NCBI GenBank assembly: GCA_949358305.1
Contig: OX442323.1
Coordinates: 434,001 to 498,000 of the forward strand
Source: Strigamia acuminata
Taxonomy: Eukaryota > Arthropoda > Chilopoda > Geophilomorpha > Linotaeniidae
Direction: 5' to 3'
DNA: 64,000 nt
Part shown: piece after piece, positions 16,163 through 64,000 of the stretch
Position numbering within the stretch: the first letter of the stretch is position 1
How the letters are laid out: every line of letters begins with the position of its first letter
Notes under the pieces: model-generated
Seen by the model: only the letters and a program-made list of their open reading frames with translations
Told to the model about the DNA's origin: nothing
Database searches by the model: none
Program-made: the position numbers and the translations under genes

Positions 16163-19100
16163 TCACTCAAGTTCTAGGGCTCTCACATGCTTGACTGACC
16201 TTTTCAACTCACGTCCATCGGGTAGCACAACTTTTATCACACGGATTTGACCATCCTCACCGGGAAAAATTTCTTTTATCCTAGCAAGGGGCCAAAAATA
16301 GGGATTTGTACCCATTTTCTCTAGCAACACGATTTGGTCTACTTTAGGGTTTTTGAAGAACTTATCACCTTTTGTTTCATAAAAATTCCTCAGTTGCATG
16401 AGGTAACTCTTTTTCCAAATTTTCCAGAACTCCCAAATAAATTGGCGTCGTTTAATGTCTAGTTTTCGCAAATCTGATTTTTTAATTGCACTCAATTGTT
16501 TGTTTATTACGTATTTTGGCATGCCTCCTGTTAGAAAGTTTTCAGGTGCCAAAATTCTACCACCATCAACACTGTCGGGGACATAACTTAAAGGTCGTGA
16601 ATTTAGCACTGAACTAATTTCCAGAGCCAAAGTTTGGAGAGTTTCTAAGTCTACGGTGCTGCGCAACAATGTCTTTCGAAGTTTATCTTTAACAGAGCGG
16701 ACTAAACGCTCCCACGCTCCGCCCATCCATGGAGACAGCGGTGGGATGAATGTCCAGAGCACCCTTTTTTCAGATAGGAATGTTTTCACGTCATTATGAC
16801 CGATGAGTTTCCCCCATGATTGTAATTCGAGGCTTCCGCGCTCAAACGTCTTACTGTTGTCAGAGAAAATCTTCCCGGGGTATCCGTGGCGTGCCCCAAA
16901 TCTTCTCAATGCAAGCAAAAACTTTGGCACAGAAAGGTCCTCTGATACTTCTAAATGTATGGAACGGGTCACCATACACGTGAAAAGCAAGATGTAAACT
17001 TTTTTCTTTTCCTTCTTATTGCTGCCGACATAAATGGGACCCAAGTGGTCCACTCCTGTGTTTTGGAATGGCGCCGCTGGTGTCACACGTTCAGCAGGAA
17101 GGTCACCCGTTGAAGGGTTATTCTTTGCCAACTTTGCACGTCGACAAATGGCACACTCACGAATCACAGTTTGTATAGTTCTTCGTCCTCTTATAATCCA
17201 AAATTGTTCGCGTAGGTGATACAAGGTTTCGCTTATGTCACCGTGAAGCAACTCCAGATGCACTTTTTTAATTAACAGCCTTGTTATCCAACTGTCATAA
17301 TGCAAAATAATTGGATAAACTTCATCAAATGTCAATAAAGATTTTTTCAAGCGGCTACGAAGTCGAAGTAATCCGTCCTCGTCAATGAAGAGCTCGAAAT
17401 TGCGTAGGGTGGAATGTTTAGACAATTCTCTTTTGTTTTTCACATCATCAATCTCCTCAGAAAAATGTAGTTTCTGGGAAAATTGCAGGATCTTCAATTG
17501 GTTGTCCTCTAACTCGAGTGGCGAGAGAGGCTCACCGCGCAAAAGTTTGTTTTTCCATCGCAAAATGTATGAGAAAACTCTCAAAAGTTTGTTGTAATTC
17601 CGGAAACGTTTGAAGAATTGTCCAATAAAACTTTCTTTAACTTGAATAGTCATCACTACAATTTTTCGTTCCTCTTCTGGAAGAATCTCTTGTATAATTT
17701 CTGTTTTTTCTAGTTTTGAGACATCAACTCCAAACCACCAAAGTTTATTTTGCATCAATGTTTTTGAGTTATGTGGTCGAGTCAATAAATCTGCTGGGTT
17801 AAATTCCGTTGGTACGTGAGACCATTGTTCAGGTTTGGTCGAAGAAATAATTTCTTGCACACGGTTTGAAACGTATGGCTTCCACACGTTTTTGTCACTG
17901 TTTATCCAGGCTAAAGTTATGGTGGAGTCAGAGTAGTAACGAATTTCAGTAACGGGGTAACCTGGAAGAAAGTTTTCTAACAGGTACTTTGTCATTCTCA
18001 CTCCTACCACTGCTGCAGTTAATTCAAGTCGAGGAAGAGTCACTTTTTTCGTCGGCGCAATACGACATTTACTCAACAATAAAGTTCTTTTGCCCTCCAG
18101 ATTGACGACAAAAATTGAACAGCCAAATGCCTTAGTGCTTGCGTCACAGAATACTTCTAAAGTGATGTCTTGACCGGAATAAGTCTGCAGCCAACGTTGT
18201 ACTTTCAATTCTTTCAATTTTTGTATGTCTTGACTCCATTCTTCGACTTCTTTTTTCTCTGAGTCAAGAATCTTTTCATCCCAGTTTTTTGTCCTAATCC
18301 AGATTGCTTGAACTAGCAGTTTCATTTTAAGCACAACAGGAGCAATGAGTCCCATTGGATCGAATATGGAAGCCATTAATGAAACAACTTCTCGCTTTGT
18401 ATTCGGAATTTTTTCAATTGTCGGAATGTTAAACATCATGACATCTTCTGCCGTGTTCCACAATATTCCAAGCATTTTTATAATTCCTAAGTCCGAAAAC
18501 TCCTCTCCTCGCATATGAAAACCTTCTTTTTTCAAATTGTTGAAGACGTCCTTGCTTGAGGTCGCCCACTTCACGAGGGGAAGCTTTCCGTCGTCTAATA
18601 TCATTTTCAGTTTCTCGCAATGTGATGTTGTGTCGGCTGTAAAATCTCCTCCTGACGTCAAATCATCCATGAAGATTCCATCATCGAGTGCGTCGACTTC
18701 TTTTGCATGAGTTTCTTCAAATTGTTTCGCTTGTTTCCTAATCGTCGCACACAAGAGGAATGGAGAAGAAATGACGCCAAATGGCACGACAATCATTCGC
18801 AGAACCATTAGATTATTCCACAAATTTTGCCATGAGTATGGCTCTTTGAAATAGTCACGAGCGACCCACAAAAAACGTAAAAAGTTTGTTTGAGTTGGGT
18901 TGATCATAACCTGGAGAAACGCTTGCTTAATGTCTGCTATTATTGGAATACAATAGAGACGGAATCTCACAATAACGAGTATTAAGTCTGGATTAAGGGA
19001 GGGTCCCGGAAATAAACAGTCATTGAGGGAAAGTTTCTCCTTCTTGGATGAAGACGCGTTGAACACTACTCGAAATTTCGTCGTGTCTCGATCCTCCTTG

Positions 19101-21403
19101 ATTACAGGATGGTGAGGTATATTGTATGTTCCTTTCTTCAGAAAACGCTCTTCTTTTGGGACTTCCTCCGCGTGATTTTCGTGAATATACTGCCACATGG
19201 ACTCGTCGTAACGTTTTTTGTAATCCTCGTTAGCATCTATTCTTTTGAGTGTGTTAGCCAGTTGGTTCATGGCCAACTCCCAATTGGATTCCAAGTCGAC
19301 TTCCTGTCCATTGAATGGAAGCATGACTTCATAACGTCCATCGTCTAGACGTTTCGTAGTTGATTCGAATCGATCGCGAATAAAGTCGGATTCTTTTTCT
19401 CCCGCATTTATTCCGATTGCTTCCAAGTTCCACAGTTTGTCCAATTTTTCTTGGATGTTTAAGTCGCATGTGTTGCAACATGTTGTCAATTCTTCTTCAT
19501 CTTCGAATAAATTGGTGTTCCCCGCCGCTCCGGACAAGACCCAACCAAAAATTGTATTTATTAATCCAAGATCTGCGTTTACTTTTTTCTTGCCGTCCTT
19601 AACGACCTTCCACCACACGTCGACTCCTAAAAGCACATCGATTTGAGAAGTCTTAGCTGGTAGGTCTTCAGCAAGTTCAAGGTTTAACTTCTTCACCTTG
19701 TCTATTATTGATGAGTTAAGAATGCCCTGCACTCGTGGCAAATTTTCCACAGAAAGCATTGAAAGTTTCAAATCTTGAGTGTCATTTTTACTCTGCAGTG
19801 TGACATTAAACACATCATAGTCCGTGGCTGCTGGAGACGAGTCGTTGAATCTCTGTGTGGTGGCAGAGACACTGCCGCATTTTTTCAGTTTCAGTCTTTC
19901 AACAAATTCTTTTGTGATGAACGATCGATGGCTTCCCGGATCAATCATCCCTCGAATGCTGTGGGTTCCTCCTGATTTGGTTTTAAGATCCGCGGTGAAG
20001 ATCATTAGTTGAAGAGTCGTCGAGATTGCGCATGAAACATGTGTTGTTACTTGTGGCTCCTTCGGCTTCTCCGCAGCGCTTGTTGAATTCTTCACCTCGG
20101 ATTTTTTGCATATTGTGGAATGGTGTCGCCCACCACAATGTTTACAAGAAAATTTGACCTTGCAGTCTCCCACTCTATGTCCAGTTCTGAAACAGTTAAA
20201 ACACAGTCTGTTTTTCTTTACTATTTCGATTTTCGCGTTGATTTCGAAATCCTTTTTACAAGAGCCGTTTAAATGTTCATCATCACAAAAAATGCACTTG
20301 TTTGTCTTGAAAAGCGTATTCTTGCTTTCAGATTTCGGTTCACTCTTCGTTTTTGCACTAGTAGACTGCTTGGCGTCTTGAGTAGTTGCGCACGTGGTCA
20401 TTGAACCTTTCACTTTCGGTTTCTCCACCTCAGATTTTTCATTCTTGTCTTTTTTCGATTTTTCCGAAACGTTTTCAGTTCGTTCGGCCATCGCAACTTC
20501 ATTCACAAAGAAATTGAGCAACGTAACAATGTTCTTATTTTGAATTCCGTGAACTTGGTAAAATCTTAATGCCATTGAAGTTGGAAACTTGCTAATTATG
20601 TCGGGCAATAAGAAAGCTCCGGAAGTTTGAATTGGAATCTTAAGTTGCTCGAGAAGTCTAATAGTCGCAGAAATCTTAGTCAAATTCGTTTTTATCGCTT
20701 TCGTTGGATATACACTCGTAACAGATTTTAATTCTCGAATTGATTTTATTAACGCAGTTTGTTGGGCATCCTCATCACCAAAATGTCTTTCTAGTTCTTC
20801 CCTGGCCAGGTCATATGATTCCTCGATCAAGGGAAAAGTTGAGATGAGAATTGCCGCTTCTCCAGTACACATAGTTTGTAAATACTGGAGTTTTTCAATG
20901 TTACTCAGGTCTGGATCCTTGTGTACGGAGGTCTCGAAGTTGCTTTTAAATGTTCTGTACTTCAAAATATCTCCGTCGAATTTTACGGAATCCAATTTGG
21001 GCAGCTTCGAATTTTTTCTAAACGTTGCTGTCGCGTTCAAGGTTGTGTTCTGATTTGAGCTTGTCGACGTATTTAATCTTCCTCCCAAAGTTGGAAGTGA
21101 TCGCTTTGAGATTTCGTATCTCGTGCGAAGAAGATCCACTCTTGCTTGCATAGTCTCAAGCTTGTCAATGCATTCTAGATAATAGCCGTGGTCCGAATAT
21201 TCCTGTAGATCATTCAGCGCACCGACTATTCTCGTTTCTTTTGGGTTCGCAGTTTGCACCAGCGCTTCCAGTTCTCCTGGATCTGCTGTCTTCTCCGATA
21301 TAGACAACAGATGATTCATTGCAGTGACTTGCGACTCCCAACGTTGTTGTAGCACTTCGATTTGATCCTCAGTTAGAAGATCTCTCATTGTAGGTTCCGC
21401 CAT
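16163..21403 (-). CDS. BEL/Pao Gag-Pol polyprotein (element B), 1746 aa
   Basis: Uninterrupted polyprotein with the domain order of element A: coiled coil, DUF1759-like Gag, three zinc knuckles, D-P-G-S protease, Pao reverse transcriptase with FMDD at 911-914, RNase H, HHCC and DDE integrase, DUF5641-like C terminus. It would make particles, copy the element RNA in the cytoplasm and integrate the cDNA. The start MAEPTMRDLL aligns with the MADPSVQNMI start of A, supporting the chosen ATG. Only 60 bp separate the stop from the 3' LTR. It is nearly identical to the C protein except for local clusters of differences. No frameshift or missing catalytic motif was seen, so this is the best candidate in the window for a working source of RT and integrase. 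Confidence 0.95.
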   Translation of the reverse strand: MAEPTMRDLLTEDQIEVLQQRWESQVTAMNHLLSISEKTADPGELEALVQTANPKETRIVGALNDLQEYSDHGYYLECIDKLETMQARVDLLRTRYEISKRSLPTLGGRLNTSTSSNQNTTLNATATFRKNSKLPKLDSVKFDGDILKYRTFKSNFETSVHKDPDLSNIEKLQYLQTMCTGEAAILISTFPLIEESYDLAREELERHFGDEDAQQTALIKSIRELKSVTSVYPTKAIKTNLTKISATIRLLEQLKIPIQTSGAFLLPDIISKFPTSMALRFYQVHGIQNKNIVTLLNFFVNEVAMAERTENVSEKSKKDKNEKSEVEKPKVKGSMTTCATTQDAKQSTSAKTKSEPKSESKNTLFKTNKCIFCDDEHLNGSCKKDFEINAKIEIVKKNRLCFNCFRTGHRVGDCKVKFSCKHCGGRHHSTICKKSEVKNSTSAAEKPKEPQVTTHVSCAISTTLQLMIFTADLKTKSGGTHSIRGMIDPGSHRSFITKEFVERLKLKKCGSVSATTQRFNDSSPAATDYDVFNVTLQSKNDTQDLKLSMLSVENLPRVQGILNSSIIDKVKKLNLELAEDLPAKTSQIDVLLGVDVWWKVVKDGKKKVNADLGLINTIFGWVLSGAAGNTNLFEDEEELTTCCNTCDLNIQEKLDKLWNLEAIGINAGEKESDFIRDRFESTTKRLDDGRYEVMLPFNGQEVDLESNWELAMNQLANTLKRIDANEDYKKRYDESMWQYIHENHAEEVPKEERFLKKGTYNIPHHPVIKEDRDTTKFRVVFNASSSKKEKLSLNDCLFPGPSLNPDLILVIVRFRLYCIPIIADIKQAFLQVMINPTQTNFLRFLWVARDYFKEPYSWQNLWNNLMVLRMIVVPFGVISSPFLLCATIRKQAKQFEETHAKEVDALDDGIFMDDLTSGGDFTADTTSHCEKLKMILDDGKLPLVKWATSSKDVFNNLKKEGFHMRGEEFSDLGIIKMLGILWNTAEDVMMFNIPTIEKIPNTKREVVSLMASIFDPMGLIAPVVLKMKLLVQAIWIRTKNWDEKILDSEKKEVEEWSQDIQKLKELKVQRWLQTYSGQDITLEVFCDASTKAFGCSIFVVNLEGKRTLLLSKCRIAPTKKVTLPRLELTAAVVGVRMTKYLLENFLPGYPVTEIRYYSDSTITLAWINSDKNVWKPYVSNRVQEIISSTKPEQWSHVPTEFNPADLLTRPHNSKTLMQNKLWWFGVDVSKLEKTEIIQEILPEEERKIVVMTIQVKESFIGQFFKRFRNYNKLLRVFSYILRWKNKLLRGEPLSPLELEDNQLKILQFSQKLHFSEEIDDVKNKRELSKHSTLRNFELFIDEDGLLRLRSRLKKSLLTFDEVYPIILHYDSWITRLLIKKVHLELLHGDISETLYHLREQFWIIRGRRTIQTVIRECAICRRAKLAKNNPSTGDLPAERVTPAAPFQNTGVDHLGPIYVGSNKKEKKKVYILLFTCMVTRSIHLEVSEDLSVPKFLLALRRFGARHGYPGKIFSDNSKTFERGSLELQSWGKLIGHNDVKTFLSEKRVLWTFIPPLSPWMGGAWERLVRSVKDKLRKTLLRSTVDLETLQTLALEISSVLNSRPLSYVPDSVDGGRILAPENFLTGGMPKYVINKQLSAIKKSDLRKLDIKRRQFIWEFWKIWKKSYLMQLRNFYETKGDKFFKNPKVDQIVLLEKMGTNPYFWPLARIKEIFPGEDGQIRVIKVVLPDGRELKRSVKHVRALELE

Positions 21404-24930: not shown

Positions 24931-27900
24931 TCACTCAAGTTCTAGGGCTCTCACATGCTTGACTGACCTTTTCAACTCACGTCCATCGGGTAGCACAACT
25001 TTTATCACACGGATTTGACCATCCTCACCGGGAAAAATTTCTTTTATCCTGGCAAGTGGCCAAAAATATGGGTTAGTACCCATTTTCTCTAGCAACACGA
25101 TTTGGTCTACTTTAGGGTTTTTGAAGAACTTATCACCTTTGGATTCATAAAAATTCCTCAATTGCATGAGGTAACTCTTTTTCCAAATTTTCCAGAACTC
25201 CCAAATAAATTGGCGTCGTTTAATGTCCAGTTTTCTCAAATCGGATTTTTTAATTGCACTCAATTGTTTGTTTATTACGTATTTAGGCATACCTCCGGTT
25301 AGAAAGTTTTCAGGTGCCAAAATTCTACCACCATCAACACTGTCGGGGACATAACTTAAGGGTCGTGAATTTAGCACTGAACTAATTTCCAGAGCCAAAG
25401 TTTGGAGAGTTTCTAAGTCTACGGTGCTGCGCAACAATGTCTTTCGAAGTTTATCTTTTACAGAGCGGACTAGACGCTCCCACGCTCCGCCCATCCATGG
25501 AGACAGCGGTGGGATGAATGTCCAGAGCACCCTTTTTTCAGATAGGAATGTTTTCACGTCATTATGACCGATGAGTTTCCCCCATGATTGTAATTCGAGG
25601 CTTCCGCGCTCAAACGTCTTACTGTTGTCAGAGAAAATCTTCCCGGGGTATCCATAGCGTGCCCCAAATCTTCTCATTGCAAGCAAAAACTTTGGCACAG
25701 AAAGGTCCTCTGATACTTCTAAATGTATGGAACGGGTCACCATACACGTAAAAAGCAAGATATATACTTTTTTCTTTTCTTTCTTGTTGCTGCCGACATA
25801 AATGGGACCCAAGTGGTCAACTCCGGTGTTTTGAAATGGCGCCGCTGGTGTCACACGTTCAGCAGGAAGGTCACCCGTTGAAGGGTTGTTGCGTGCAAGT
25901 TTTCCTCGTCGGCAAATCTCACATTCTCGAATAACTGTTTGTATAGTTCTTCGTCCTCTTATAATCCAAAATTGTTCGCGTAGGTGATACAAAGTTTCGC
26001 TTATGTCACCGTGAAGCAACTCCAAATGCACTTTTTTAATTAACAGTCTTGTTATCCAACTATCATAATGCAAAATAATTGGATACACTTCATCAAATGT
26101 CAATAAAGATTTTTTCAAGCGGCTACGAAGTCGAAGTAATCCGTCCTCGTCAATGAAGAGCTCGAAATTGCGTAGGGTGGAGTGTTTAGACAGTTTTCTT
26201 TTGTTTTTCACATCATCAATCTCCTCAGAAAAATGTAATTTCTGAGAAAACTGCAGGATCTTCAATTGGTTGTCCTCTAACTCGAGTGGCGAGAGAGGCT
26301 CACCGCGCAAAAGTTTGTTTTTCCATCGCAAAATATACGAAAAAACTCTCAAAAGTTTGTTGTAATTCCGGAAACGTTTGAAAAATTGTCCAATAAAACT
26401 TTCCTTAACTTGAATAGTCATCACTACAATTTTTCGTTCCTCTTCTGGAAGAATCTCTTGTATAATTTCTGTTTTTTCTAGTTTTGAGACATCAACTCCA
26501 AACCACCAAAGTTTATTTTGCATCAATGTTTTTGAGTTATGTGGTCGAGTCAACAAATCTGCTGGGTTAAATTCCGTTGGTACGTGAGACCATTGTTCGG
26601 GTTTGGTGGAAGAAATAATTTCTTGAACACGGTTTGAGACGTATGGCTTCCATACGTTCTTGTCCGAATTTATCCAGGCTAGAGTTATGGTGGAGTCCGA
26701 GTAGTATCGCACTTCAGTGACCGGGTAACCGGGAAGAAAGTTTTTTAACAGGTACTTGGTCATTCGCACTCCTACCACTGCTGCAGTTAATTCAAGTCGA
26801 GGAAGAGTCACTTTTTTCGTCGGCGCAATACGACATTTACTCAACAATAAAGTTCTTTTGCCCTCCAGATTGACGACAAAAATTGAACAGCCAAATGCCT
26901 TTGTGCTTGCGTCACAGAAAACTTCTAAAGTGATGTCTTGACCGGAATAAGTCTGCAGCCAACGTTGTACTTTCAATTCTTTCAATTTTTGTATGTCTTG
27001 ACTCCATTCTTCGACTTCTTTTTTCTCTGAGTCAAGAATCTTTTCATCCCAGTTTTTTGTTCTAATCCAGATTGCTTGAACTAGCAGTTTCATTTGAAGC
27101 ACAACAGGAGCAATGAGTCCCATTGGATCGAATATGGAAGCCATTAATGAAACAACTTCTCGCTTCGTATTCGGAATTTTTTCAATTGTCGGAATGTTAA
27201 ACATCATGACATCTTCTGCCGTGTTCCACAATATTCCAAGCATTTTTATAATTCCTAAGTCCGAAAACTCCTCTCCTCGCATATGAAAACCTTCTTTTTT
27301 CAAATTGTTGAAGACGTCCTTGCTTGAGGTCGCCCACTTCACGAGGGGAAGCTTTCCGTCGTCTAATATCATTTTCAGTTTCTCGCAATGTGATGTTGTG
27401 TCGGCTGTAAAATCTCCTCCTGACGTCAAATCATCCATGAAGATTCCATCATCGAGTGCGTCGACTTCTTTTGCATGAGTTTCTTCAAATTGTTTCGCTT
27501 GTTTCCTAATCGTCGCACACAAGAGGAATGGAGAAGAAATGACGCCAAATGGCACGACAATCATTCGCAGAACCAATAGATTATTCCACAAATTTTGCCA
27601 TGAGTATGGCTCTTTGAAATAGTCACGAGCGACCCACAAAAAACGTAAAAAGTTTGTTTGAGTTGGGTTGATCATAACCTGGAGAAACGCTTGCTTAATG
27701 TCTGCTATTATTGGAATACAATAGAGACGGAATCTCACAATAACGAGTATTAAGTCTGGATTAAGGGAGGGTCCCGGAAATAAACAGTCATTGAGGGAAA
27801 GTTTCCCCTTCTTGGATGAAGACGCGTTGAACACTACTCGAAATTTCGTCGTGTCTCGATCCTCCTTGATTACAGGATGGTGAGGTATATTGTATGTTCC

Positions 27901-30171
27901 TTTCTTCAGAAAACGCTCTTCTTTTGGGACTTCCTCCGCGTGATTTTCGTGAATATACTGCCACATGGACTCGTCGTAACGTTTTTTGTAGTCCTCGTTG
28001 GCATCTATTCTATTGAGCGTGTTGGCCAGTTGATTCATGGCCAATTCCCAATTGGACTCCAAGTCGACTTCCTGTCCGTTGAATGGCAGCATGACTTCAT
28101 AACGTCCATCGTCTAGACGCTTCGTAGTTGATTCGAATCGATCGCGAATAAAGTCGGATTCTTTTTCTCCCGCATTTATTCCGATTGCTTCCAAGTTCCA
28201 CAGTTTGTCCAATTTTTCTTGGATGTCTAAGTCGCATGTGTTGCAACATGTTGTCAATTCTTCCTCATCTTCGAATAAATTGGTGTTCCCCGCCGCTCCG
28301 GACAAGACCCAACCAAAAATTGTATTTATTAATCCAAGATCTGCGTTTACTTTTTTCTTGCCGTCCTTAACGACCTTCCACCACACGTCGACTCCTAAAA
28401 GCACGTCGATTTGAGAAGTCTTAGCTGGTAGGTCTTCAGCAAGTTCAAGGTTTAACTTCTTCACCTTGTCTATTATTGATGAGTTAAGAATGCCCTGCAC
28501 TCGTGGCAAATTTTCCACAGAAAGCATTGAAAGTTTCAAATCTTGAGTGTCATTTTTACTTTGCAATGTGACATTAAACACATCATAGTCCGTGGCTGCT
28601 GGAGACGAGTCGTTGAATCTCTGTGTGGTGGCAGAGACACTGCCGCATTTTTTCAGTTTCAGTCTTTCAACAAATTCTTTTGTAATGAACGATCGATGGC
28701 TTCCCGGATCAATCATTCCACGAATGCTGTGAGTTCCTCCTGATTTGGTCTTGAGGTCCGCAGTGAAGATCATTAGTTGTAGAGTCGTCGAGATCGCGCA
28801 TGAAACATGTGTTGTTACTTGTGGCTCCTTCGGCTTCTCCGCAGCGCTCGTTGAATTCTTCACCTCGGATTTTTTGCATATTGTGGAATGGTGTCGCCCA
28901 CCACAATGTTTACAAGAAAATTTGACCTTGCAGTCTCCCACTCTATGTCCAGTTCTGAAACAGTTAAAACACAGTCTGTTTTTCTTTACTATTTCGATTT
29001 TCGCGTTGATTTCGAAATCCTTTTTACAAGAGCCGTTTAAATGTTCATCATCACAAAAAATGCACTTGCTTGTCCTTAAAGGCACACTCTTGCTGTCAGA
29101 TTTCGTTTCATTCTTTGTTTTGGCACTAGTAGACTGCTTGGCGTCTTGAGTAGCTGCGCACGTGGTCATTGAACCTTTCACTTTCGGTTTCTCCACTTCA
29201 GATTTTTCATTCTTGTCTTTTTTCGATTTTTCAGAAACGCTTTCAGTTCGTTCGGCCATCGCAACTTCATTCACAAAGAAATTGAGCAACCTAACAATGT
29301 TCTTATTTTGAATTCCGTGAACTTGGTAAAATCTTAATGCCATTGAAGTTGGAAACTTGCTAATTATGTCGGGCAATAAGAAAGCTCCGGAAGTCTGAAT
29401 AGGAATTTTTAGTTGCTCGAGAAGTCTAATAGTCGCAGAAATCTTTGTCAAATTTGTTTTTATCGCTTTAGTTGGATATACACTTGAAACAGCTTTTAAT
29501 TCTCGAATTGATTTTATTAACGCAGTTTGTTGGGCATCCTCATCACCAAAATGTCTTTCGAGTTCTTCTCTTGCAAGGTCGTAGGATTCCTCGATCAGGG
29601 GAAAAGTTGAGATGAGAATTGCCGCTTCTCCAGTACACATAGTTTGTAAATACTGGAGTTTTTCAATGTTACTCAGGTCTGGATCCTTGTGTACGGAGGT
29701 CTCGAAGTTGCTTTTGAATGTTCTGTACTTCAAAATATCTCCCTCGAATTTTACGGAATCCAGTTTGGGCAGCTTCGAATTTTTTCTAAACGTTGCTGTC
29801 GCGTTCAAGGTTGTATTCTGGTTTGAGCTTGTCGACGTATTTAATCTTCCTCCCAAAGTTGGAAGTGATCGCTTTGAAATTTCGTATCTCGTGCGAAGAA
29901 GATCCACTCTTGCTTGCATAGTCTCAAGCTTGTCAATGCATTCTAGATAATAGCCGTGGTCCGAATATTCCTGTAGATCATTCAGCGCACCGACTATTCT
30001 CGTTTCTTTCGGGGTCGCAGTTTGCACCAGCGCTTCCAGTTCACCTGGATCTGCTGTCTTCTCCGATATAGACAACAAATGATTCATTGCAGTGACTTGC
30101 GATTCCCAACGTTGTTGTTGCACTTCGATTTGATCCTCAGTTAGAAGATCTCTCATTGTAGGTTCCGCCAT
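24931..30171 (-). CDS. BEL/Pao Gag-Pol polyprotein (element C), 1746 aa
   Basis: Open polyprotein collinear with B: coiled coil, DUF1759-like Gag, three zinc knuckles, D-P-G-S protease, reverse transcriptase with FMDD at 911-914, RNase H, HHCC/DDE integrase and DUF5641-like end. Most of it is nearly identical to B, but differences cluster in short patches (about 25890-25935, 26615-26750, 28000-28085, 29065-29120, 29555-29600), as if parts came from another template. The start ATG corresponds to B's. The gene looks intact, but the element has a truncated 5' LTR and a 3' LTR broken by B, so the copy is unlikely to move by itself. Its protein could still act in trans if transcribed. Confidence 0.95.
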   Translation of the reverse strand: MAEPTMRDLLTEDQIEVQQQRWESQVTAMNHLLSISEKTADPGELEALVQTATPKETRIVGALNDLQEYSDHGYYLECIDKLETMQARVDLLRTRYEISKRSLPTLGGRLNTSTSSNQNTTLNATATFRKNSKLPKLDSVKFEGDILKYRTFKSNFETSVHKDPDLSNIEKLQYLQTMCTGEAAILISTFPLIEESYDLAREELERHFGDEDAQQTALIKSIRELKAVSSVYPTKAIKTNLTKISATIRLLEQLKIPIQTSGAFLLPDIISKFPTSMALRFYQVHGIQNKNIVRLLNFFVNEVAMAERTESVSEKSKKDKNEKSEVEKPKVKGSMTTCAATQDAKQSTSAKTKNETKSDSKSVPLRTSKCIFCDDEHLNGSCKKDFEINAKIEIVKKNRLCFNCFRTGHRVGDCKVKFSCKHCGGRHHSTICKKSEVKNSTSAAEKPKEPQVTTHVSCAISTTLQLMIFTADLKTKSGGTHSIRGMIDPGSHRSFITKEFVERLKLKKCGSVSATTQRFNDSSPAATDYDVFNVTLQSKNDTQDLKLSMLSVENLPRVQGILNSSIIDKVKKLNLELAEDLPAKTSQIDVLLGVDVWWKVVKDGKKKVNADLGLINTIFGWVLSGAAGNTNLFEDEEELTTCCNTCDLDIQEKLDKLWNLEAIGINAGEKESDFIRDRFESTTKRLDDGRYEVMLPFNGQEVDLESNWELAMNQLANTLNRIDANEDYKKRYDESMWQYIHENHAEEVPKEERFLKKGTYNIPHHPVIKEDRDTTKFRVVFNASSSKKGKLSLNDCLFPGPSLNPDLILVIVRFRLYCIPIIADIKQAFLQVMINPTQTNFLRFLWVARDYFKEPYSWQNLWNNLLVLRMIVVPFGVISSPFLLCATIRKQAKQFEETHAKEVDALDDGIFMDDLTSGGDFTADTTSHCEKLKMILDDGKLPLVKWATSSKDVFNNLKKEGFHMRGEEFSDLGIIKMLGILWNTAEDVMMFNIPTIEKIPNTKREVVSLMASIFDPMGLIAPVVLQMKLLVQAIWIRTKNWDEKILDSEKKEVEEWSQDIQKLKELKVQRWLQTYSGQDITLEVFCDASTKAFGCSIFVVNLEGKRTLLLSKCRIAPTKKVTLPRLELTAAVVGVRMTKYLLKNFLPGYPVTEVRYYSDSTITLAWINSDKNVWKPYVSNRVQEIISSTKPEQWSHVPTEFNPADLLTRPHNSKTLMQNKLWWFGVDVSKLEKTEIIQEILPEEERKIVVMTIQVKESFIGQFFKRFRNYNKLLRVFSYILRWKNKLLRGEPLSPLELEDNQLKILQFSQKLHFSEEIDDVKNKRKLSKHSTLRNFELFIDEDGLLRLRSRLKKSLLTFDEVYPIILHYDSWITRLLIKKVHLELLHGDISETLYHLREQFWIIRGRRTIQTVIRECEICRRGKLARNNPSTGDLPAERVTPAAPFQNTGVDHLGPIYVGSNKKEKKKVYILLFTCMVTRSIHLEVSEDLSVPKFLLAMRRFGARYGYPGKIFSDNSKTFERGSLELQSWGKLIGHNDVKTFLSEKRVLWTFIPPLSPWMGGAWERLVRSVKDKLRKTLLRSTVDLETLQTLALEISSVLNSRPLSYVPDSVDGGRILAPENFLTGGMPKYVINKQLSAIKKSDLRKLDIKRRQFIWEFWKIWKKSYLMQLRNFYESKGDKFFKNPKVDQIVLLEKMGTNPYFWPLARIKEIFPGEDGQIRVIKVVLPDGRELKRSVKHVRALELE

Positions 30172-57985: not shown

Positions 57986-58945
57986 TGTTGCAACTCGCCT
58001 CTGCCGTGATGCGACGAGTTGTAACGCGATGGGGAATTCTTGGCAAATTTCCCATAGGCCTATACTGAGAGGAGAAATGAGTTGACTTGAGTTTCTGCAC
58101 TGGATCTTGAGGGGAGCTGCTCCAGGGAGTTTGGGGTTAACTCTCCCTACTCACTCATGCTTTGTGTTGAAGGAAATAAAGCTTGTTGTTGAAAATTCCA
58201 CATAATGTTTTTATTCTTTTTTAAAACATTAAAATGGAGGCAAAATCCAACATAACTACATCTAATTCTTCATAACAAGAGTGTAACAACTTCATAACAA
58301 CAACAATTCTATAGCAACAACAAATTCACGAGGCACCTAGTGACTAAATTCATAAATAACATAAGTTAAAGCTTGCATTGTGCCTCATAATAGAGATAAA
58401 ATCAACTAAAATTAACAGAAATCATTGGAAAGAATTATAACAAATAGAATAGGAATAAACTTAACTAAATATGCAAATAACGCATCTAAAACAAGTCAAA
58501 TACACTGTAAAAATGCATTAATTGCAATCCATTACAAAATTAACAATTCCTTCTTTTCCAATGCACTTTTAAAGCAACTCAGATGCTTCAAACCCATCAT
58601 TCCGCCTTCACAACTGAACTGGGAACAGGACAAGACTTAGAAATAGGTAAACATAACATGAAAACATTGGAAAACAAGACTAAAAATTCCTAAACCTTGA
58701 CCTTGTCATTCTAAGAGATAAAATACCTAACAAACATTGTCTTTACTGAAAATTGGCACACAAAAAAAGACATGTAAAAATTCCTATTACAACAGAAAAA
58801 GATTAGATATTTGCTAAATAAATAATACAATTATAAGACCGAAATTAGTAACTCTTCTTTACATTTTCGAACACATAAAATCAAACTACTATCAAATTGA
58901 CGAGCAGTTGTGGTCTCTCTTTCCTCCTTTCTGTTGCTCGAAACA
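57986..58945 (-). repeat. 3' LTR of element F (960 bp)
   Basis: On the minus strand it starts TGTTTCGAGCAACAG (58945) and ends CGAGTTGCAACA (57986). Minus-strand poly(A) signal AATAAA at 58210-58215, followed by GAGTGAGTAGG as in the other families. The bases before it (57982-57985, CATC) would be the left target duplication; the right copy is outside the window. A 71-codon frame in both LTRs is not considered a gene. Confidence 0.9.
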
Positions 58946-59038
58946 GAGATTGCCGCCGAAAAGAAAAGAAGGTGAAGAAGAACCTCTTAGCAATCTGAAA
59001 ACTTCTCATCCACCTAGGATCGGCTCCCTAATGACTCC
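58946..59038 (-). other. 3' untranslated stretch of F with pyrimidine tract
   Basis: On the element strand a pyrimidine-rich run (TTCTTCTTCACCTTC and onwards) leads to TTCGGCGGCAATCTC just before the LTR. This is the F version of the motif that precedes every 3' LTR in this window. Confidence 0.55.
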
Positions 59039-62026
59039 TTAAGGTAAGCGCAATTTTTTGCGGATCAAACTGGCCACCCATGGAGGTAATCTTCGATTCA
59101 AAATCGCTAAACTTAAATGTGCCGCTCCATTAATTAGCTTTCTCTTGACTTCTATAGAATTGATTGATTTCTGAAAACAGGTACGACACGTTGGCTTGTA
59201 TCTCTCTTCTCCTCCCACAACCTGAACTTGCGTTTCACCCGATATTCGTTTGGTGAACGACGCTTGGTTTCCACAAAAGTGGCATTTGGCATGAAGTTTG
59301 ACAATAGTTTCCGCTAGTGGAATGAGATTAGATACTGCCTTGAATTCCTGTCTCTTAAAATCACCATTTAAAGCGGCAATTATTACATTCTTTCCTTCGT
59401 TCGCCATTTTGTCGGAAAACGAATCGATGTCTCCGAAAAATTGCCCTTCGTCGATACCTATCGTCTTGACCGACTCCGCAATTTTCTTGATTTCCTGTAA
59501 CGACGCGACCCGAACCGCTGGACGTCGTTGTCCGGTGTGGCTAACCATTTCATCTTTACTATATCTAACGTCTGTCAAATGCTTAACAAGCAGGTAAGAA
59601 TTTTCTTCTTCATTTCGGATTACATTAAGTAAAGCAGTAGTTTTTCCAGAAAACATTGGGCCAATTACTAAATGTATATTTCCCGTGGCCTTTGTGACTG
59701 CATTTGATCTTCTGTGCGAATTGGTGAGTTTCTTGCGACTCCATTTCAATATCTTCCTCCATTTACTTAAACCCTTTTCTTCATCTTTTTTGAAATTTTT
59801 CGGAAATTCTCCTTTCTTTTCCGTAGACTCCAGTGTGTCAGGACTCTGAGAAATCGCCATCTTGCCCGACCTTATCCCTTTAAACGTCCGCTTTCCATCC
59901 ATTTCCAATTCGATGGGGACGTCAGGATGCCGTACCTCCAGCTCGCTAGAGCGGCTCGCGGCAAAACGAGAAGCGATGACGCCTTTTGCTCGTACTCCAC
60001 CCTTTTCGCTTTTCTCGTCGGGCATTGATGTGGAATTCGCCTGTCCAAACCCGCCTTTGTCCTTTTTTGAAGTGTTGAAAGTCATCTTCTTTCCAGAATC
60101 GATCGCCATACACGATACATCTCCCAGTGAGATATCGTCTTTGTAGATGGAAGGCTCTTTTGAGTTAATTTGTCCGTTTAAAATCCATCCAAAAACTGTT
60201 TTCATCATTCCTAATTCTGGACTAATTCTCTTCGTTCCCGCTTGAATTATTTTCCACCATGCTCCGCTTCCGATCAAGACATCTACCTCATCCGACACGG
60301 AGGGATGTGGTTCTGCCATCTCAAGATTAAACGACTTGATTTGTTGCAGCGTCTGGTGATCTACCACTCCCTTTATATTGGGAAGTGTGTCGGTATCAAG
60401 AGCAAATACAGACACTTTCTGCTTGTCGTGACGAGACTGCAACTCGAATCGAAACACGTCATGAGTTGTAGGAACTGGTTCTTTATTCAGCAGACACTGG
60501 GTCATGGTGTGATACGTCTCAATCTTGTTTAGGTGTAATTTCTTTGCTAACCGCTTCGTAATATATGAACGATGACTACCCGGATCGAGTAATCCACGAA
60601 CTGGGATTGTTTCGCCACTCTTTCGGACAAACAATGCGGTGAAAACCATTAGCTGGACGTCACTTGAGACCGACAACGAGACGTTGGCGGAGACGTTCTC
60701 TTCTTTGGTATCAGTTGGCTTTTCCGCATGACCTCTGTTACAAATTGAAGAATGGTGTCGACCACCGCATGATCGGCAACAAAATTTCACAGGGCAGTTA
60801 CCCACTGTATGGCTTGGTCTCAGGCAATTAAAGCATAGACGTTTTCGCTTAACGATGTCGTATTTCTCCGAAACTTCCAGATTTGCGTCGCAATTATTGT
60901 TGAAATGATCTCCTTCACAGAAGGCACAGATCAATTTCCGGACTGGACCTGATTTTGGTTTGAATAATTCTTTCGTATTGGACCCGAATGACGTATTTTG
61001 CGCAACCGCGCAAGATGACATGGTCCCTCGTAATTCTTCTTTTTGCTCTCTAGTTGCTGGTTTCTCACTCTTCTTGGTGACTTTCTGACTGGTAAATACG
61101 CTATCGTCTGATAATTCTGCTACTCTGACTTCGCTTGCTACAAATTCGAGAAATAAATTAACGTTTTCCACGTTTCCTTTGTAAATCCTATGAAATCGTC
61201 TTCCCAATTCCGGTGGAAACTTCCGCAATAATTCCGGGATTAGAAATAATCCAGTAGTCGTAACTGGGAACTTCAACTGTTCTAATGTTCGGAAAGCACC
61301 GGTGAGGGACGTCAATAGAGATTTTACCGGCTGGATTGGGTACAAATCTTTAACTGCTTCGGCTTCACGAATTTTCCTCGCCAGAGCGTTCTTTTGGGCT
61401 ACTTCTGACCCAAAAAGTCCTTCTAAACTGCTAAGTGCCATTAAATACGAATCGTTAGTAAGTGGGTACGACTTAATCGCCACTTCAGCTTCCCCGATAC
61501 AGCTTGATTTAAGATATTGAAGTTTTTCGACGTTCGATAACTCGGCATCGGCGTCAACTGTGGTTGAAAACATATCCATGAAGCTCTTATACTCCATCGG
61601 ATTCCCGTCGAATTTCTGCATTGTCAGCTTTGGAAGCTTTGTAGTCTTCCTTGAGATTATCGATGAGTTGTTCAGAAATCCAGAATTCATTAGCGTATTT
61701 CCGCCGGGATGTGCCCCAAACTTATCCTGCATCTGTTTTGAAAATTTCGTCCTTTGCTTAAGAAGATTGACCTTAGTCCTAATGTCTTCGAGACGTCTCA
61801 AACTAAGCAGGTAATCTGAACGTTCTATCTTGTCTTTAAAGACAGCGAGCTCATCAATAAGGTCACTCAACTGCGCATCTATTGTTGCGTGGAGAGCTTC
61901 AAGCTCACCCCCGTCGAGAACGTTTGCAGATGTCGAGAGCAGATCCTCTGCTCCTTGGGCCTTGGCTTGCCATTGTGTTTCTTTCTCTTCCGCTGCTTCC
62001 GTGGTCAAACCAGCCGCAGTTGCCAT
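59039..62026 (-). CDS. Gag-protease-thymidine kinase fusion protein (995 aa)
   Basis: Uninterrupted fusion. Residues 1-110 are helical and contain DGGELEAL, like the A/B/C start. A DUF1759-like Gag block spans about 129-280, three CCHC-type knuckles about 366-428, and an aspartic protease has D481 in D-P-G-S. Homology to A fades after FGWILNG (about 615). A charged, low-complexity linker (about 620-781) follows, then a type II thymidine kinase: P-loop GPMFSGKTT at 789-797, DEGQFF at 859-864 with E860 as the likely catalytic base, LNGDFKR, and Cys915, 918, 947 and 950. The distances E-C (55) and C-C (3, 32, 35) equal those of human TK1 (E98; C153, C156, C185, C188). A basic 45-aa tail ends the protein and lacks a KEN degron. 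The family phosphorylates thymidine to dTMP using ATP. RT, RNase H and integrase are missing. Activity and release by the protease are inferred. Confidence 0.93.
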   Translation of the reverse strand: MATAAGLTTEAAEEKETQWQAKAQGAEDLLSTSANVLDGGELEALHATIDAQLSDLIDELAVFKDKIERSDYLLSLRRLEDIRTKVNLLKQRTKFSKQMQDKFGAHPGGNTLMNSGFLNNSSIISRKTTKLPKLTMQKFDGNPMEYKSFMDMFSTTVDADAELSNVEKLQYLKSSCIGEAEVAIKSYPLTNDSYLMALSSLEGLFGSEVAQKNALARKIREAEAVKDLYPIQPVKSLLTSLTGAFRTLEQLKFPVTTTGLFLIPELLRKFPPELGRRFHRIYKGNVENVNLFLEFVASEVRVAELSDDSVFTSQKVTKKSEKPATREQKEELRGTMSSCAVAQNTSFGSNTKELFKPKSGPVRKLICAFCEGDHFNNNCDANLEVSEKYDIVKRKRLCFNCLRPSHTVGNCPVKFCCRSCGGRHHSSICNRGHAEKPTDTKEENVSANVSLSVSSDVQLMVFTALFVRKSGETIPVRGLLDPGSHRSYITKRLAKKLHLNKIETYHTMTQCLLNKEPVPTTHDVFRFELQSRHDKQKVSVFALDTDTLPNIKGVVDHQTLQQIKSFNLEMAEPHPSVSDEVDVLIGSGAWWKIIQAGTKRISPELGMMKTVFGWILNGQINSKEPSIYKDDISLGDVSCMAIDSGKKMTFNTSKKDKGGFGQANSTSMPDEKSEKGGVRAKGVIASRFAASRSSELEVRHPDVPIELEMDGKRTFKGIRSGKMAISQSPDTLESTEKKGEFPKNFKKDEEKGLSKWRKILKWSRKKLTNSHRRSNAVTKATGNIHLVIGPMFSGKTTALLNVIRNEEENSYLLVKHLTDVRYSKDEMVSHTGQRRPAVRVASLQEIKKIAESVKTIGIDEGQFFGDIDSFSDKMANEGKNVIIAALNGDFKRQEFKAVSNLIPLAETIVKLHAKCHFCGNQASFTKRISGETQVQVVGGEERYKPTCRTCFQKSINSIEVKRKLINGAAHLSLAILNRRLPPWVASLIRKKLRLP

Positions 62027-62352
62027 TTATTCTCGAGAAAGAGAGAATGAGAATAAAAATTCTATTCAACAACTCAATAACTGCGAATTAAATTCCCACG
62101 AATATTCTCCGAACTTCACAGACTCTTACTTATACTTGCTTAACGTTAATTCAAATGCGGTGTGCAAATGAAAAACGACCTCGAAATAAAATGCTAAACT
62201 CAACTCCGGAATACTACAGACAAATTGACTTAACACACTATACGTAATACACTGGGACGGAATTATTGACCGCACAAATGAACTTATCCGCATAAATATC
62301 TAGATAATTCCCCCAAAATGCACTTAATTCGAAATTAATATTCAATATCTAA

Positions 62353-62565
62353 CCGCACAACCGAGATAAATAGTTATCTTTTACAATAACACTGCACAAA
62401 AGAGATAAATAGTTATATTTTACAATAACCCCGCACAAAGAGATAATAGCTATATTTAATAATAGCGCCGCACAAAAGAGATAATAGCTATCATATACAA
62501 TAGCGCCGCACAAAAGAGATAATAGCTATATTTAATAATAGCCCCGCACAAAAGAGATAATAACT
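62353..62565. repeat. 37-39-bp minisatellite in the F leader, six units
   Basis: GCACAA recurs at 62355, 62394, 62433, 62470, 62508 and 62546. Units share AAGAGATAATAGCTAT and end AATAGCGCC or similar; several contain the palindrome ATAGCTAT. Confidence 0.85.
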
Positions 62566-63181
62566 TGATATTCAAACTTATTGACATGAAAAAAAAACCC
62601 CTTTTTAAACTCCCCAAATACAGCTCGAAATTGGCAGAAACTCCCTTGGAAAATTAGACAAAGAATTAATTTCAGTAAATATAATTCTTAAATTTTAACA
62701 AGAAATTGAATTAAAACTATTCTTGTTCTTTATCATCAGCAGATGAACTTGAAGATTGACATTGCGTTGTGTTTCTCAAATTGTTGACCAGGAAATTGCT
62801 TGCTTGTCTCCTTATGTTGACCGCCACAGTAGAAGGACTCCGAACTCGTTACACTTGACATAAAATCCACTGACGAATCAACTCCCTGACGACTGCGAAG
62901 GATGACACAGCACAAACACACTTCTGTCGCAATTGGCGACAATAATCCAGTGGAAATAAATCAAAAAACGTGTTGTCACACACTTCACACCACGAAAATC
63001 GGCACCACACACTGCTTACTGCGAACTAGATGCCACACATTGCCTCACTGTGAAGTCGGGAACACACACGCAAATCACCGTGAAATCGACGTCACACACC
63101 TGGCTAAAAATGCAATGACGTGCACTGAAATCCACTGGAAGAACTGGACGAAAATCCTGGTTGTTAACAACAAAATCCTTG

Positions 63182-63198
63182 GGTCACGGTACCAAAAA
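63182..63198 (-). promoter_or_regulatory. Primer-binding-site-like motif, element F
   Basis: Minus-strand TTTTTGGTACCGTGACC immediately inside the 5' LTR, one base from D's version. This fixes the polarity of F. Confidence 0.65.
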
Positions 63199-64000
63199 TG
63201 TTGCAACTCGCCTCTGCCGTGATGCGACGAGTTGTAACGCGATGGGGAATTCTTGGCAAATTTCCCATAGGCCTATACTGAGAGGAGAAATGAGTTGACT
63301 TGAGTTTCTGCACTGGATCTTGAGGGGAGCTGCTCCAGGGAGTTTGGGGTTAACTCTCCCTACTCACTCATGCTTTGTGTTGAAGGAAATAAAGCTTGTT
63401 GTTGAAAATTCCACATAATGTTTTTATTCTTTTTTAAAACATTAAAATGGAGGCAAAATCCAACATAACTACATCTAATTCTTCATAACAAGAGTGTAAC
63501 AACTTCATAACAACAACAATTCTATAGCAACAACAAATTCACGAGGCACCTAGTGACTAAATTCATAAATAACATAAGTTAAAGCTTGCATTGTGCCTCA
63601 TAATAGAGATAAAATCAACTAAAATTAACAGAAATCATTGGAAAGAATTATAACAAATAGAATAGGAATAAACTTAACTAAATATGCAAATAACGCATCT
63701 AAAACAAGTCAAATACACTGTAAAAATGCATTAATTGCAATCCATTACAAAATTAACAATTCCTTCTTTTCCAATGCACTTTTAAAGCAACTCAGATGCT
63801 TCAAACCCATCATTCCGCCTTCACAACTGAACTGGGAACAGGACAAGACTTAGAAATAGGTAAACATAACATGAAAACATTGGAAAACAAGACTAAAAAT
63901 TCCTAAACCTTGACCTTGTCATTCTAAGAGATAAAATACCTAACAAACATTGTCTTTACTGAAAATTGGCACACAAAAAAAGACATGTAAAAATTCCTAT
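63199..64000 (-). repeat. 5' LTR of element F, cut by window edge
   Basis: 802 bp that match 57986-58787 with a constant offset of 5213 and no difference noticed. By the length of the other copy it should end near 64158. Confidence 0.92.

What the first reader, a model, noticed from the sequence alone, without database searches (positions are those of the whole stretch)
59039..62026. A retrotransposon Gag-protease fused in frame to a TK1-type thymidine kinase
Seen: one open frame joins BEL-type Gag, zinc knuckles and protease to a complete type II thymidine kinase (P-loop 789-797, DEGQFF 859-864, four cysteines at 915/918/947/950), while RT, RNase H and integrase are absent. Known: TK1 enzymes make dTMP from thymidine, and their zinc-site spacing matches here exactly. 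Inferred: the element captured a cellular or viral TK mRNA (no intron) and packages the kinase in its particles, raising dTTP where reverse transcription occurs, as virus-carried dUTPases and thymidine kinases adjust nucleotide pools. I know of no described BEL/Pao element with this gene.
Basis: partly seen in the sequence, partly recalled or inferred. Interest (0 to 1): 0.96.

Follow-up and report, generated by a model that had tools for sequence, protein, structure and literature searches.

The report
Retrotransposon carrying its own thymidine kinase
In a centipede genome, a family of jumping genes carries, where its DNA-copying enzymes should be, a gene for an enzyme that makes a DNA building block, and many copies have kept it intact, which is an unusual case of a mobile element holding on to a metabolic enzyme.

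Summary
One 995-aa frame (59039-62026) joins BEL/Pao Gag, zinc knuckles and protease to a complete TK1-type thymidine kinase (PF00265 E 1.5e-53; human-TK1 fold). It lies in a whole LTR element: identical 960-bp LTRs, 5-bp target duplication, tRNA-His-like primer site, no pol. The genome matches Strigamia acuminata, chromosome 9.

It is no one-off: 84 Gag-Pro-TK frames of intact length in two families (37 A, 47 B; Gag-Pro 59% identical); one stop among 150 scored TK matches. TK is under purifying selection: like Gag in deep comparisons (dN/dS 0.13 against 0.12; linker 0.48), looser than Gag in recent ones. An autonomous BEL element in the window shares primer-site and 3' motifs, so pol functions probably come in trans.

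A third family kept only a TK remnant and the tail (one copy read), yet 19 of its 25 listed frames are open, so TK looks useful but dispensable. dTTP supply for reverse transcription is the likeliest role; activity and packaging are not shown. My searches found no described Gag-TK element.

By-product: four endogenous loci with DNA polymerase B, p74, TMK, another TK and dUTPase-like matches resemble a large nuclear DNA virus.

The parts
57986..58945 (-). 3' LTR (960 bp, TG...CA on the element strand)
   Evidence: identical over 960 of 960 bp to the other LTR; starts directly at the 140-bp satellite; duplication ACATC at 57981-57985 and just beyond the other LTR
58946..58962 (-). motif directly before the 3' LTR, TTTTCGGCGGCAATCTC
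   Evidence: similar motif at the same place in the autonomous element 16163-21403, in B (L025, L026), in L027 and in F (L035)
59039..62026 (-). single ORF, 995 aa: Gag, zinc knuckles, protease, linker, thymidine kinase, tail
   Evidence: intact length in 37 of 41 listed full-Gag A rows
61181..61612 (-). Gag domain DUF1759 (residues 139-282)
   Evidence: Pfam E 4.7e-15
60740..60928 (-). three Cys/His zinc-knuckle-like motifs (residues 367-429)
   Evidence: positions; recognised by eye, no Pfam match in this copy
60167..60604 (-). retropepsin-like protease region (residues 475-620; DPGSH at 481-485)
   Evidence: Asp_protease_2 and DUF1758, both under curated cut-off; aligned with the autonomous elements
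59699..60106 (-). fast-evolving linker (residues 641-776)
   Evidence: dN/dS 0.48 (A against L002) and 0.44 (A against B)
59174..59683 (-). thymidine kinase domain (residues 782-951)
   Evidence: PF00265 1.5e-53; model of residues 770-995 mean pLDDT 88.8; Foldseek to human TK1 1xbt E 4.5e-19, TM-score by target length 0.95
59042..59164 (-). C-terminal tail, two predicted helices (residues 955-995); a related tail is kept in the D copy read
62027..63198 (-). leader (about 1.17 kb) with tandem repeats at 62350-62575
   Evidence: segment 62050-62340 matched 95% or more in 40 places (40 of 49 candidates scored), spaced as in A copies where compared
63174..63194 (-). primer-binding site resembling the complement of tRNA-His (TGGTACCGTGACCC, then AAGGATT), four bases inside the 5' LTR end
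63199..64000 (-). 5' LTR, cut by the window end (continues to C11:498158, i.e. 64158)
16163..21403 (-). autonomous BEL/Pao Gag-Pol (1746 aa), candidate helper; LTRs 1190 bp, 100% identical
   Evidence: Peptidase_A17, integrase zinc-binding domain, DUF5641; LTRs and primer site
24931..30171 (-). second BEL/Pao Gag-Pol frame (1746 aa), candidate helper; its LTR pair was not resolved by my script
89..5323 (+). third BEL/Pao Gag-Pol frame (1744 aa), candidate helper

Best explanation
A non-autonomous BEL/Pao LTR retrotransposon lineage in which a captured TK1-type thymidine kinase stands, after the protease and a linker, where pol should be. SHOWN by sequence: the Gag-Pro-TK frame; LTRs and target duplication; no pol in the copies read; 84 frames of intact length in two diverged families; purifying selection on TK; cis signals like those of an autonomous BEL element in the same window. 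INFERRED: the element makes its own Gag particles; RT, RNase H and integrase come in trans from autonomous BEL elements; each Gag chain carries a kinase, cleaved off or kept in the particle; the kinase turns thymidine into dTMP and so raises dTTP where or when reverse transcription happens, for example in non-dividing cells in which cellular TK1 is low (recalled from vertebrates). The helical tail probably serves assembly or localisation, because it outlived the kinase in the D copy read. TK was captured once, before A and B split, and later lost in D.
For: Complete catalytic and zinc motifs, TK1 fold. Purifying selection: A against L002 (a diverged, 5'-truncated A-like copy) TK dN/dS 0.133 at dS 1.0, beside 0.12 in the 98 Gag codons available, 0.044 in the knuckles, 0.074 in protease, 0.48 in the linker, 0.39 in the tail. 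Within A 10 synonymous and 9 nonsynonymous differences over 9 distinct TKs (P 0.004), within B 15 and 13 over 6 (P 0.0004). A against B: TK dN 0.386, Gag dN 0.381. Recent spread: aligned LTR pairs identical in L025 and L026 (1358 bp), L027 (718), L028 (950), L029 (960) and D L034 (1243). Shared signals with the autonomous element 16163-21403: GGT..CCGTGACC..AGGAT after the 5' LTR, CGGCAAT-type motif before the 3' LTR; a tRNA-His of the genome (ARAGORN, L048) ends in the matching sequence. A+B TK clade 100/99; TKs of this genome one group 100/94, kept when E or C+D is left out (99/97, 99/93).
Against: No activity, expression or particle data. In close pairs TK is less constrained than Gag: B pair L025/L026 TK 0.182 against Gag 0.023; A window/L027 TK 0.174 against Gag 0.056; A window/L028 two nonsynonymous and no synonymous TK differences. 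Family D shows that an element of this lineage can spread with TK reduced to a remnant (19 of 25 listed frames open; remnant read in one copy). 2 of 22 distinct A/B places read carry a change in a key motif (L038 DEEQFF, L045 P-loop). B has Ser (FSRR) where A and human TK1 have Thr (FTKR, YTKR); a change of human Thr163, which I take to be this position, to Ser shifts specificity (title of 2wvj), so B's substrate may differ. No pol-bearing element with the same leader or a close Gag was seen: the one Gag-Pol-size frame among the 127 of 1073 Gag candidates scored is 43% identical, so the helper is not pinned down.
Confidence: 0.47

Rival explanations
1. The TK domain is kept mainly as a folding and multimerising module (TK1 enzymes form dimers and tetramers; recalled) that took over the place of pol for particle assembly; catalysis is secondary.
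For: The D copy read keeps the start of the TK domain and the C-terminal tail after losing the DEGQFF and zinc motifs; A's tail is helical in the model; TK is less constrained than Gag in close pairs.
Against: P-loop, DEGQFF, GGxxxY and zinc motifs are kept between A and B, which are 55% identical in TK; 20 of the 22 distinct A/B places read keep P-loop and DEGQFF (ten of them picked from the list for differing scores).
Confidence: 0.17
2. The kinase is released and acts in the cell at large, not in the particle: it raises the whole dTTP pool and so helps all BEL elements (a shared good), which is why family D can do without its own.
For: TK follows a protease in the same chain; TK-bearing and TK-less relatives coexist and both have identical LTRs in the copies read; similar cis signals suggest one mobilisation pool.
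Against: A shared good would not by itself keep TK constrained in each element; no location is tested.
Confidence: 0.2
3. The copies are kept because the host uses the extra thymidine kinase (gene dosage or domestication).
For: The genome holds at least 150 TK matches of several kinds.
Against: The copies read with flanks are LTR elements in or near 140-bp satellite (L025, L026, L027, L029 directly, L028 about 2.2 kb away); Gag and protease are constrained with TK, as expected of selection on transposition.
Confidence: 0.07
4. Chance fusion or assembly artefact.
For: None.
Against: 84 frames of intact length on many scaffolds, two diverged families, HiFi assembly with QV 59.6 (PMC10556566).
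Confidence: 0.01

Closest known systems
BEL/Pao LTR retrotransposons
   Same: Gag (DUF1759), protease region, TG..CA LTRs, 4-5 bp target duplications, single-frame polyprotein
   Different: RT, RNase H and integrase are missing and a thymidine kinase stands in their place
TR-GAG elements of plants (non-autonomous LTR elements that encode only Gag)
   Same: two LTRs, one Gag-bearing frame, no pol; a TR-GAG moved in Arabidopsis ddm1 (PMC8704663, passages read)
   Different: here the frame also holds a protease and a complete metabolic enzyme; the plant case had a closely similar autonomous relative, none was seen here within capped searches
Maize Bs1 (LTR element with transduced host gene pieces)
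   Same: an LTR element that took up host coding sequence (PMC7264820, PMC13317346, passages read)
   Different: the Bs1 segments come from three genes and the review says none had full length; here one full-length catalytic domain is under selection in two diverged families
Acutely transforming retroviruses with Gag-oncogene fusions (recalled, not searched)
   Same: a captured host gene fused to Gag in place of pol, helper-dependent
   Different: those are short-lived and act on cell growth; this lineage is older than the A/B split and carries a nucleotide-salvage enzyme
dUTPase-bearing retroviruses; TK-bearing pox-, herpes- and other DNA viruses (recalled)
   Same: an element-carried enzyme of dTTP supply
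   Different: my searches found no LTR retroelement with a TK1-type kinase
Human cytosolic TK1 (1xbt, 1w4r)
   Same: fold, P-loop, DEGQFF, four-cysteine zinc site
   Different: 42-44% identical in the structural alignment; Gag-Pro-linker in front and a helical tail behind; B has Ser in place of a substrate-side Thr

Membership tests
BEL/Pao LTR retrotransposon | LTRs flanking the internal part, TG...CA | tested here: met
   960-bp LTRs, 100% identical
BEL/Pao LTR retrotransposon | short target duplication (4-5 bp; value recalled) | tested here: met
   ACATC in L029, ACACC in L025, GTTG in L026, TTTG in L027; four of four tested
BEL/Pao LTR retrotransposon | BEL-type Gag and protease | tested here: met
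   DUF1759 4.7e-15; DUF1758 and Asp_protease_2 weak, below cut-off; 38-39% identity over Gag-Pro to window elements that have PF05380
BEL/Pao LTR retrotransposon | RT, RNase H, integrase (needed to be an autonomous member) | tested here: not met
   absent between the LTRs; filed as a non-autonomous relative, not as an autonomous BEL
BEL/Pao LTR retrotransposon | tRNA primer-binding site after the 5' LTR | tested here: met
   imperfect match (one substitution and a 2-base insertion over about 18 bases) to the complement of a tRNA-His of this genome, four bases inside
TR-GAG-like non-autonomous LTR element | LTRs and a Gag frame without pol | tested here: met
TR-GAG-like non-autonomous LTR element | a closely similar autonomous partner | tested here: inconclusive
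   the one Gag-Pol-size frame among 127 of 1073 Gag candidates scored is 43% identical; the leader search (40 of 49 scored) gave no locus to read
TK1 (type II) thymidine kinase | family match over the full domain | tested here: met
   PF00265 positions 1-176 of 176, 181.7 bits
TK1 (type II) thymidine kinase | P-loop, DEGQF catalytic motif, Cys4 zinc site | tested here: met
   for the window copy; 20 of 22 distinct A/B places read keep P-loop and DEGQFF
TK1 (type II) thymidine kinase | TK1 fold | tested here: met
   model pLDDT 88.8; TM-score 0.95 by target length, rmsd 1.2-1.3 to 1xbt
TK1 (type II) thymidine kinase | thymidine kinase activity, tetramer | not testable with these tools
   needs protein
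Gag-oncogene-type defective retroelement | captured gene fused to Gag in place of pol, mobilised by a helper | tested here: inconclusive
   fusion in place of pol is met; helper inferred from shared signals only

The most novel reading that the evidence does not exclude
An old lineage of satellite-like retroelements lives off autonomous BEL elements while carrying its own nucleotide-salvage enzyme fused to the capsid protein, so that the particle brings a dTTP source to reverse transcription; families A and B keep it, and family D is a natural knock-out that shows it can be dispensed with. The kinase may have come from, or gone to, an endogenous large DNA virus of the same genome.
Probability: 0.38. 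Interest if true: 0.9.

Novelty: new variant of a known kind. Interest (0 to 1): 0.8.

Why it matters
Mobile elements often pick up host gene pieces, but these are usually incomplete or short-lived. Here a complete metabolic enzyme is fused to Gag, is under purifying selection in two diverged families, and has been lost in a third that still spreads. This makes a testable case for the idea that dNTP supply limits retrotransposition, and it would extend the virus habit of carrying nucleotide-salvage genes to an LTR retrotransposon.

Tried and rejected
Assembly artefact or chance fusion: rejected. Neutral decay of TK in A/B: rejected, though TK is looser than Gag in close pairs. An autonomous element with the same LTR or leader: not seen. 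The LTR search scored 40 of 100 candidates; where both LTRs are listed the pairs are about 5.2 kb apart (Gag-TK size) or, on C9, about 3.1 kb apart, where the one stretch read (L036) holds LTR copies with satellite between them and no ORF of 100 aa. Leader: 40 of 49 scored. Other nucleotide enzymes amplified with BEL elements: dUTPase 6, TMK 5 and dNK 7 matches, none near the count of TK; they led to the endogenous virus-like loci. Host TK1 gene with introns: not separable, because the list stopped at 150 of 205 TK candidates. Standalone classes C and D181: 10 ORFs from loci around standalone TKs gave no transposon domain apart from Ty3 capsid and aspartic protease in a neighbouring element in L016, and two weak unrelated matches in L022; their repeat type is unknown. 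Viral contigs: no relative of Gag residues 1-442, of the E kinase or of the PolB piece. Phages: only TKs under 60% identity, no place covering 80% of the query. TK tree: 119 of 123 database rows used; the program flags long branches that meet; the grouping survived leaving out E or C+D, with a thinned row set of 57 (14 long-branch rows and two thirds of the unnamed rows dropped). Gag-Pro tree: F and D unresolved. One search's script stopped with an error after printing the Gag-Pro-TK alignment that I cite. In one search the script took satellite or other repeats for the LTRs of L029 and of 24931-30171; for L029 I use, for the other I make no LTR claim. L001 and L028 are the same genome copy, so one search's 14 A copies are 13 places.
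Full report
WHAT IS THERE. The frame reported at 59039-62026 lies on the minus strand and encodes 995 residues without a stop. Pfam finds DUF1759 (a BEL Gag domain), weak aspartic-protease matches under their cut-offs and a full-length thymidine kinase domain, 782-951, E 1.5e-53. By sequence the nearest solved structure is human TK1 (1w4r, 6.4e-43). A model of residues 770-995, made with 54 other sequences, has mean pLDDT 88.8; Foldseek places it on human TK1 (1xbt, E 4.5e-19, TM-score by target length 0.95, rmsd 1.3). The last 40 residues form two predicted helices outside the part aligned to TK1.

THE ELEMENT. The ORF is framed by two LTRs of 960 bp, 57986-58945 and 63199-64158 (the second is cut by the window's end and was read on L029), identical in all 960 bp, with TG...CA ends and the duplication ACATC on both sides; the element sits in a 140-bp satellite array. 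L025, L026 and L027 show duplications ACACC, GTTG and TTTG. The element is about 6.2 kb and has no pol. A sequence like the complement of tRNA-His follows the 5' LTR after four bases. The genome has 17 sites that match my tRNA-His pattern with one mismatch; ARAGORN calls tRNA-His at one of the two loci tested (L048 yes, L049 no). The autonomous BEL element at 16163-21403 has a like primer site and a like motif directly before its 3' LTR; the LTRs of the other two autonomous frames were not resolved. This is why I infer that autonomous BEL proteins serve these elements.

THE HOST. A mitochondrial contig gives a COX1 closest to a geophilomorph centipede, Mecistocephalus (84%, then horseshoe crabs 82-83%; 8000 candidates scored, 120 listed). 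The genome paper of Strigamia acuminata (PMC10556566; first of three parts and one passage with Table 2 read) gives a longest scaffold of 66,985,994 bp and an N90 of 9,836,499 bp: exactly the lengths of C1 and C11 here. Total and count differ slightly (237,534,282 bp and 158 scaffolds in print, 237,517,015 and 157 here). The window is therefore on chromosome 9, and C13 (10.34 Mb) is the Y.

COPIES. The TK search scored 150 of 205 candidates. By my count of its rows: 84 Gag-Pro-TK frames of intact length (family A 32 of 995 aa and 5 of 1002; family B 34 of 1013 and 13 of 1009, stop to stop), 40 standalone frames of 190 aa (class C, 4 read), 13 of class D181 (9 read), 5 of class E (3 read), and 8 truncated, broken or odd; one of the 150 has a stop. 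The Gag search scored 127 of 1073 candidates: 37 of 41 rows that match the whole A query at 98% or more, and 47 of 51 B rows (57% identity, query 6 or 7 to 311), have the intact length. These counts are lower bounds. The copies read with flanks are LTR elements in 140-bp satellite (L025, L026, L027 on the side seen, L029) or about 2.2 kb from it (L028).

SELECTION. A against B: dN is 0.386 in TK, 0.381 in Gag, 0.64 in the linker; dS is beyond correction in Gag and protease, 4.95 in TK, 1.44 in the linker. A against the older A-like copy L002 (itself truncated at the 5' side): dN/dS 0.133 in TK, 0.12 in the last 98 Gag codons, 0.044 in the knuckles, 0.074 in protease, 0.48 in the linker, 0.39 in the tail. 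In close pairs TK is looser than Gag: L025/L026 0.182 against 0.023, window/L027 0.174 against 0.056, and window/L028 differ by two nonsynonymous and no synonymous TK changes. Within A (13 distinct places, 9 distinct TKs) there are 10 synonymous and 9 nonsynonymous differences, P 0.004; within B (6 places) 15 and 13, P 0.0004. L002, L038 and L045 were outside those groups by the script's motif rule; L038 reads DEEQFF and L045 has a changed P-loop, so 20 of 22 places keep both motifs. Ten of the 22 were picked for differing scores. B has FSRR where A has FTKR; I take the Ser to stand at human Thr163, whose change to Ser shifts specificity according to the title of 2wvj. So the kinase is under selection, but not every copy need be active, and B's substrate preference may differ.

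RELATED FAMILIES WITHOUT THE KINASE. Family D (25 rows in the Gag list, 19 with the open 892-aa frame) has Gag-Pro at 45% identity to A. In the one copy read (L034), the protease is followed by a stretch that aligns with the P-loop region of B, but with the P-loop changed, no DEGQFF and no zinc site, and then a C-terminal tail with 16 of 32 residues identical to B. Its LTRs are identical over 1243 bp. Family F (L035, one copy in the list) has Gag-Pro followed by hydrophobic segments (by eye) and no TK; its LTRs are 99.4% identical. In a Gag-Pro tree A, B, D and F stand together against the three window autonomous elements (100/100); D and F are unresolved inside. One capture before the A/B split with a later loss in D is the simplest account (inferred).

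ORIGIN OF THE KINASE. In a tree with 119 database TKs, the eight TK rows of this genome form one group (100/94) and A+B a clade (100/99). The grouping holds when E or C+D is left out, though branches are long. The nearest database TKs to class C are about 50% identical. Class E lies 15-64 kb from dUTPase-like matches in five places (38-39 of 129 model positions, in frames of 44-45 aa, so fragments or exons). In four of these a thymidylate kinase, a p74-like gene and a 1082-aa DNA polymerase B frame lie in the same stretch of 123-343 kb. This looks like an endogenous large nuclear DNA virus, or one such insertion later duplicated. Whether the retroelement took its kinase from the host or from such a virus stays open.

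HOW IT PROBABLY WORKS. Gag makes particles around the element's RNA; helper BEL proteins copy and integrate it; each Gag chain brings a kinase that makes dTMP. The benefit would be a better dTTP supply during reverse transcription. Only the anatomy, the copy numbers and the selection are shown; the rest is inference. The survival of family D says that the kinase helps but is not required, or that neighbours can supply it.

NOVELTY. Fusion-sized database proteins with a TK like this one: 3 hits among 467 candidates, none with a Gag domain listed (only relatives sharing short words are found). Paper searches for such an element showed none in their listings (wider searches); listed papers were not opened except PMC7264820, PMC13317346, PMC8704663 and PMC6327564, of which I read passages. 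Known relatives in kind are Bs1, TR-GAG elements and, from memory, Gag-oncogene retroviruses. I rate it a new variant of a known kind.

Noticed in passing
G000 C3:1802431-1953041, C5:11168997-11292405, C5:11625376-11777762, C13:1129651-1472735 (and C13:7699905-7715152 in part): Four stretches, each with a 1082-aa DNA polymerase B frame, a p74-like gene (E 3e-12 to 2e-11), a thymidylate kinase (the one on C13 with a stop), the class E thymidine kinase and a partial dUTPase-like match: looks like an endogenous large nuclear DNA virus in several copies, or one insertion later duplicated. Not assembled or read through.
   Followed up: partly
L009-L012 and 36 further places: Class C: a standalone intronless TK frame of 185 aa with 40 matches on 17 scaffolds; flanks of 4.7-4.9 kb are 99.98-100% identical between L009, L010 and L012, and a 1.8-kb piece is inverted in L011 and L032. 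Repeat type unknown.
   Followed up: partly
L013, L014, L018-L024: Class D181: a second standalone TK family (181 aa, 79% identical to class C), 13 matches, 9 read.
   Followed up: partly
L035:1276-3948: Family F: a Gag-Pro frame that ends in several hydrophobic, membrane-like segments (by eye) in place of pol or TK; LTRs 99.4% identical.
   Followed up: partly
L025 and L026 kinase region: Family B TK has Ser (FSRR) where A and human TK1 have Thr; by alignment this may be human Thr163, a specificity residue.
   Followed up: no
G000 C5:14360162-14371247: Gag-TK elements in tandem with LTRs spaced 5204 bases apart, as if neighbours share an LTR.
   Followed up: no
G000 C9:946776-1010204; L036: A-type LTR copies amplified together with satellite DNA at spacings of about 3.1 kb.
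   Followed up: partly
window 52000-57985 and other arrays: A 140-bp satellite hosts the window element, L025, L026, L027 and D L034, and lies about 2.2 kb from L028; target preference or survival in heterochromatin not tested.
   Followed up: no
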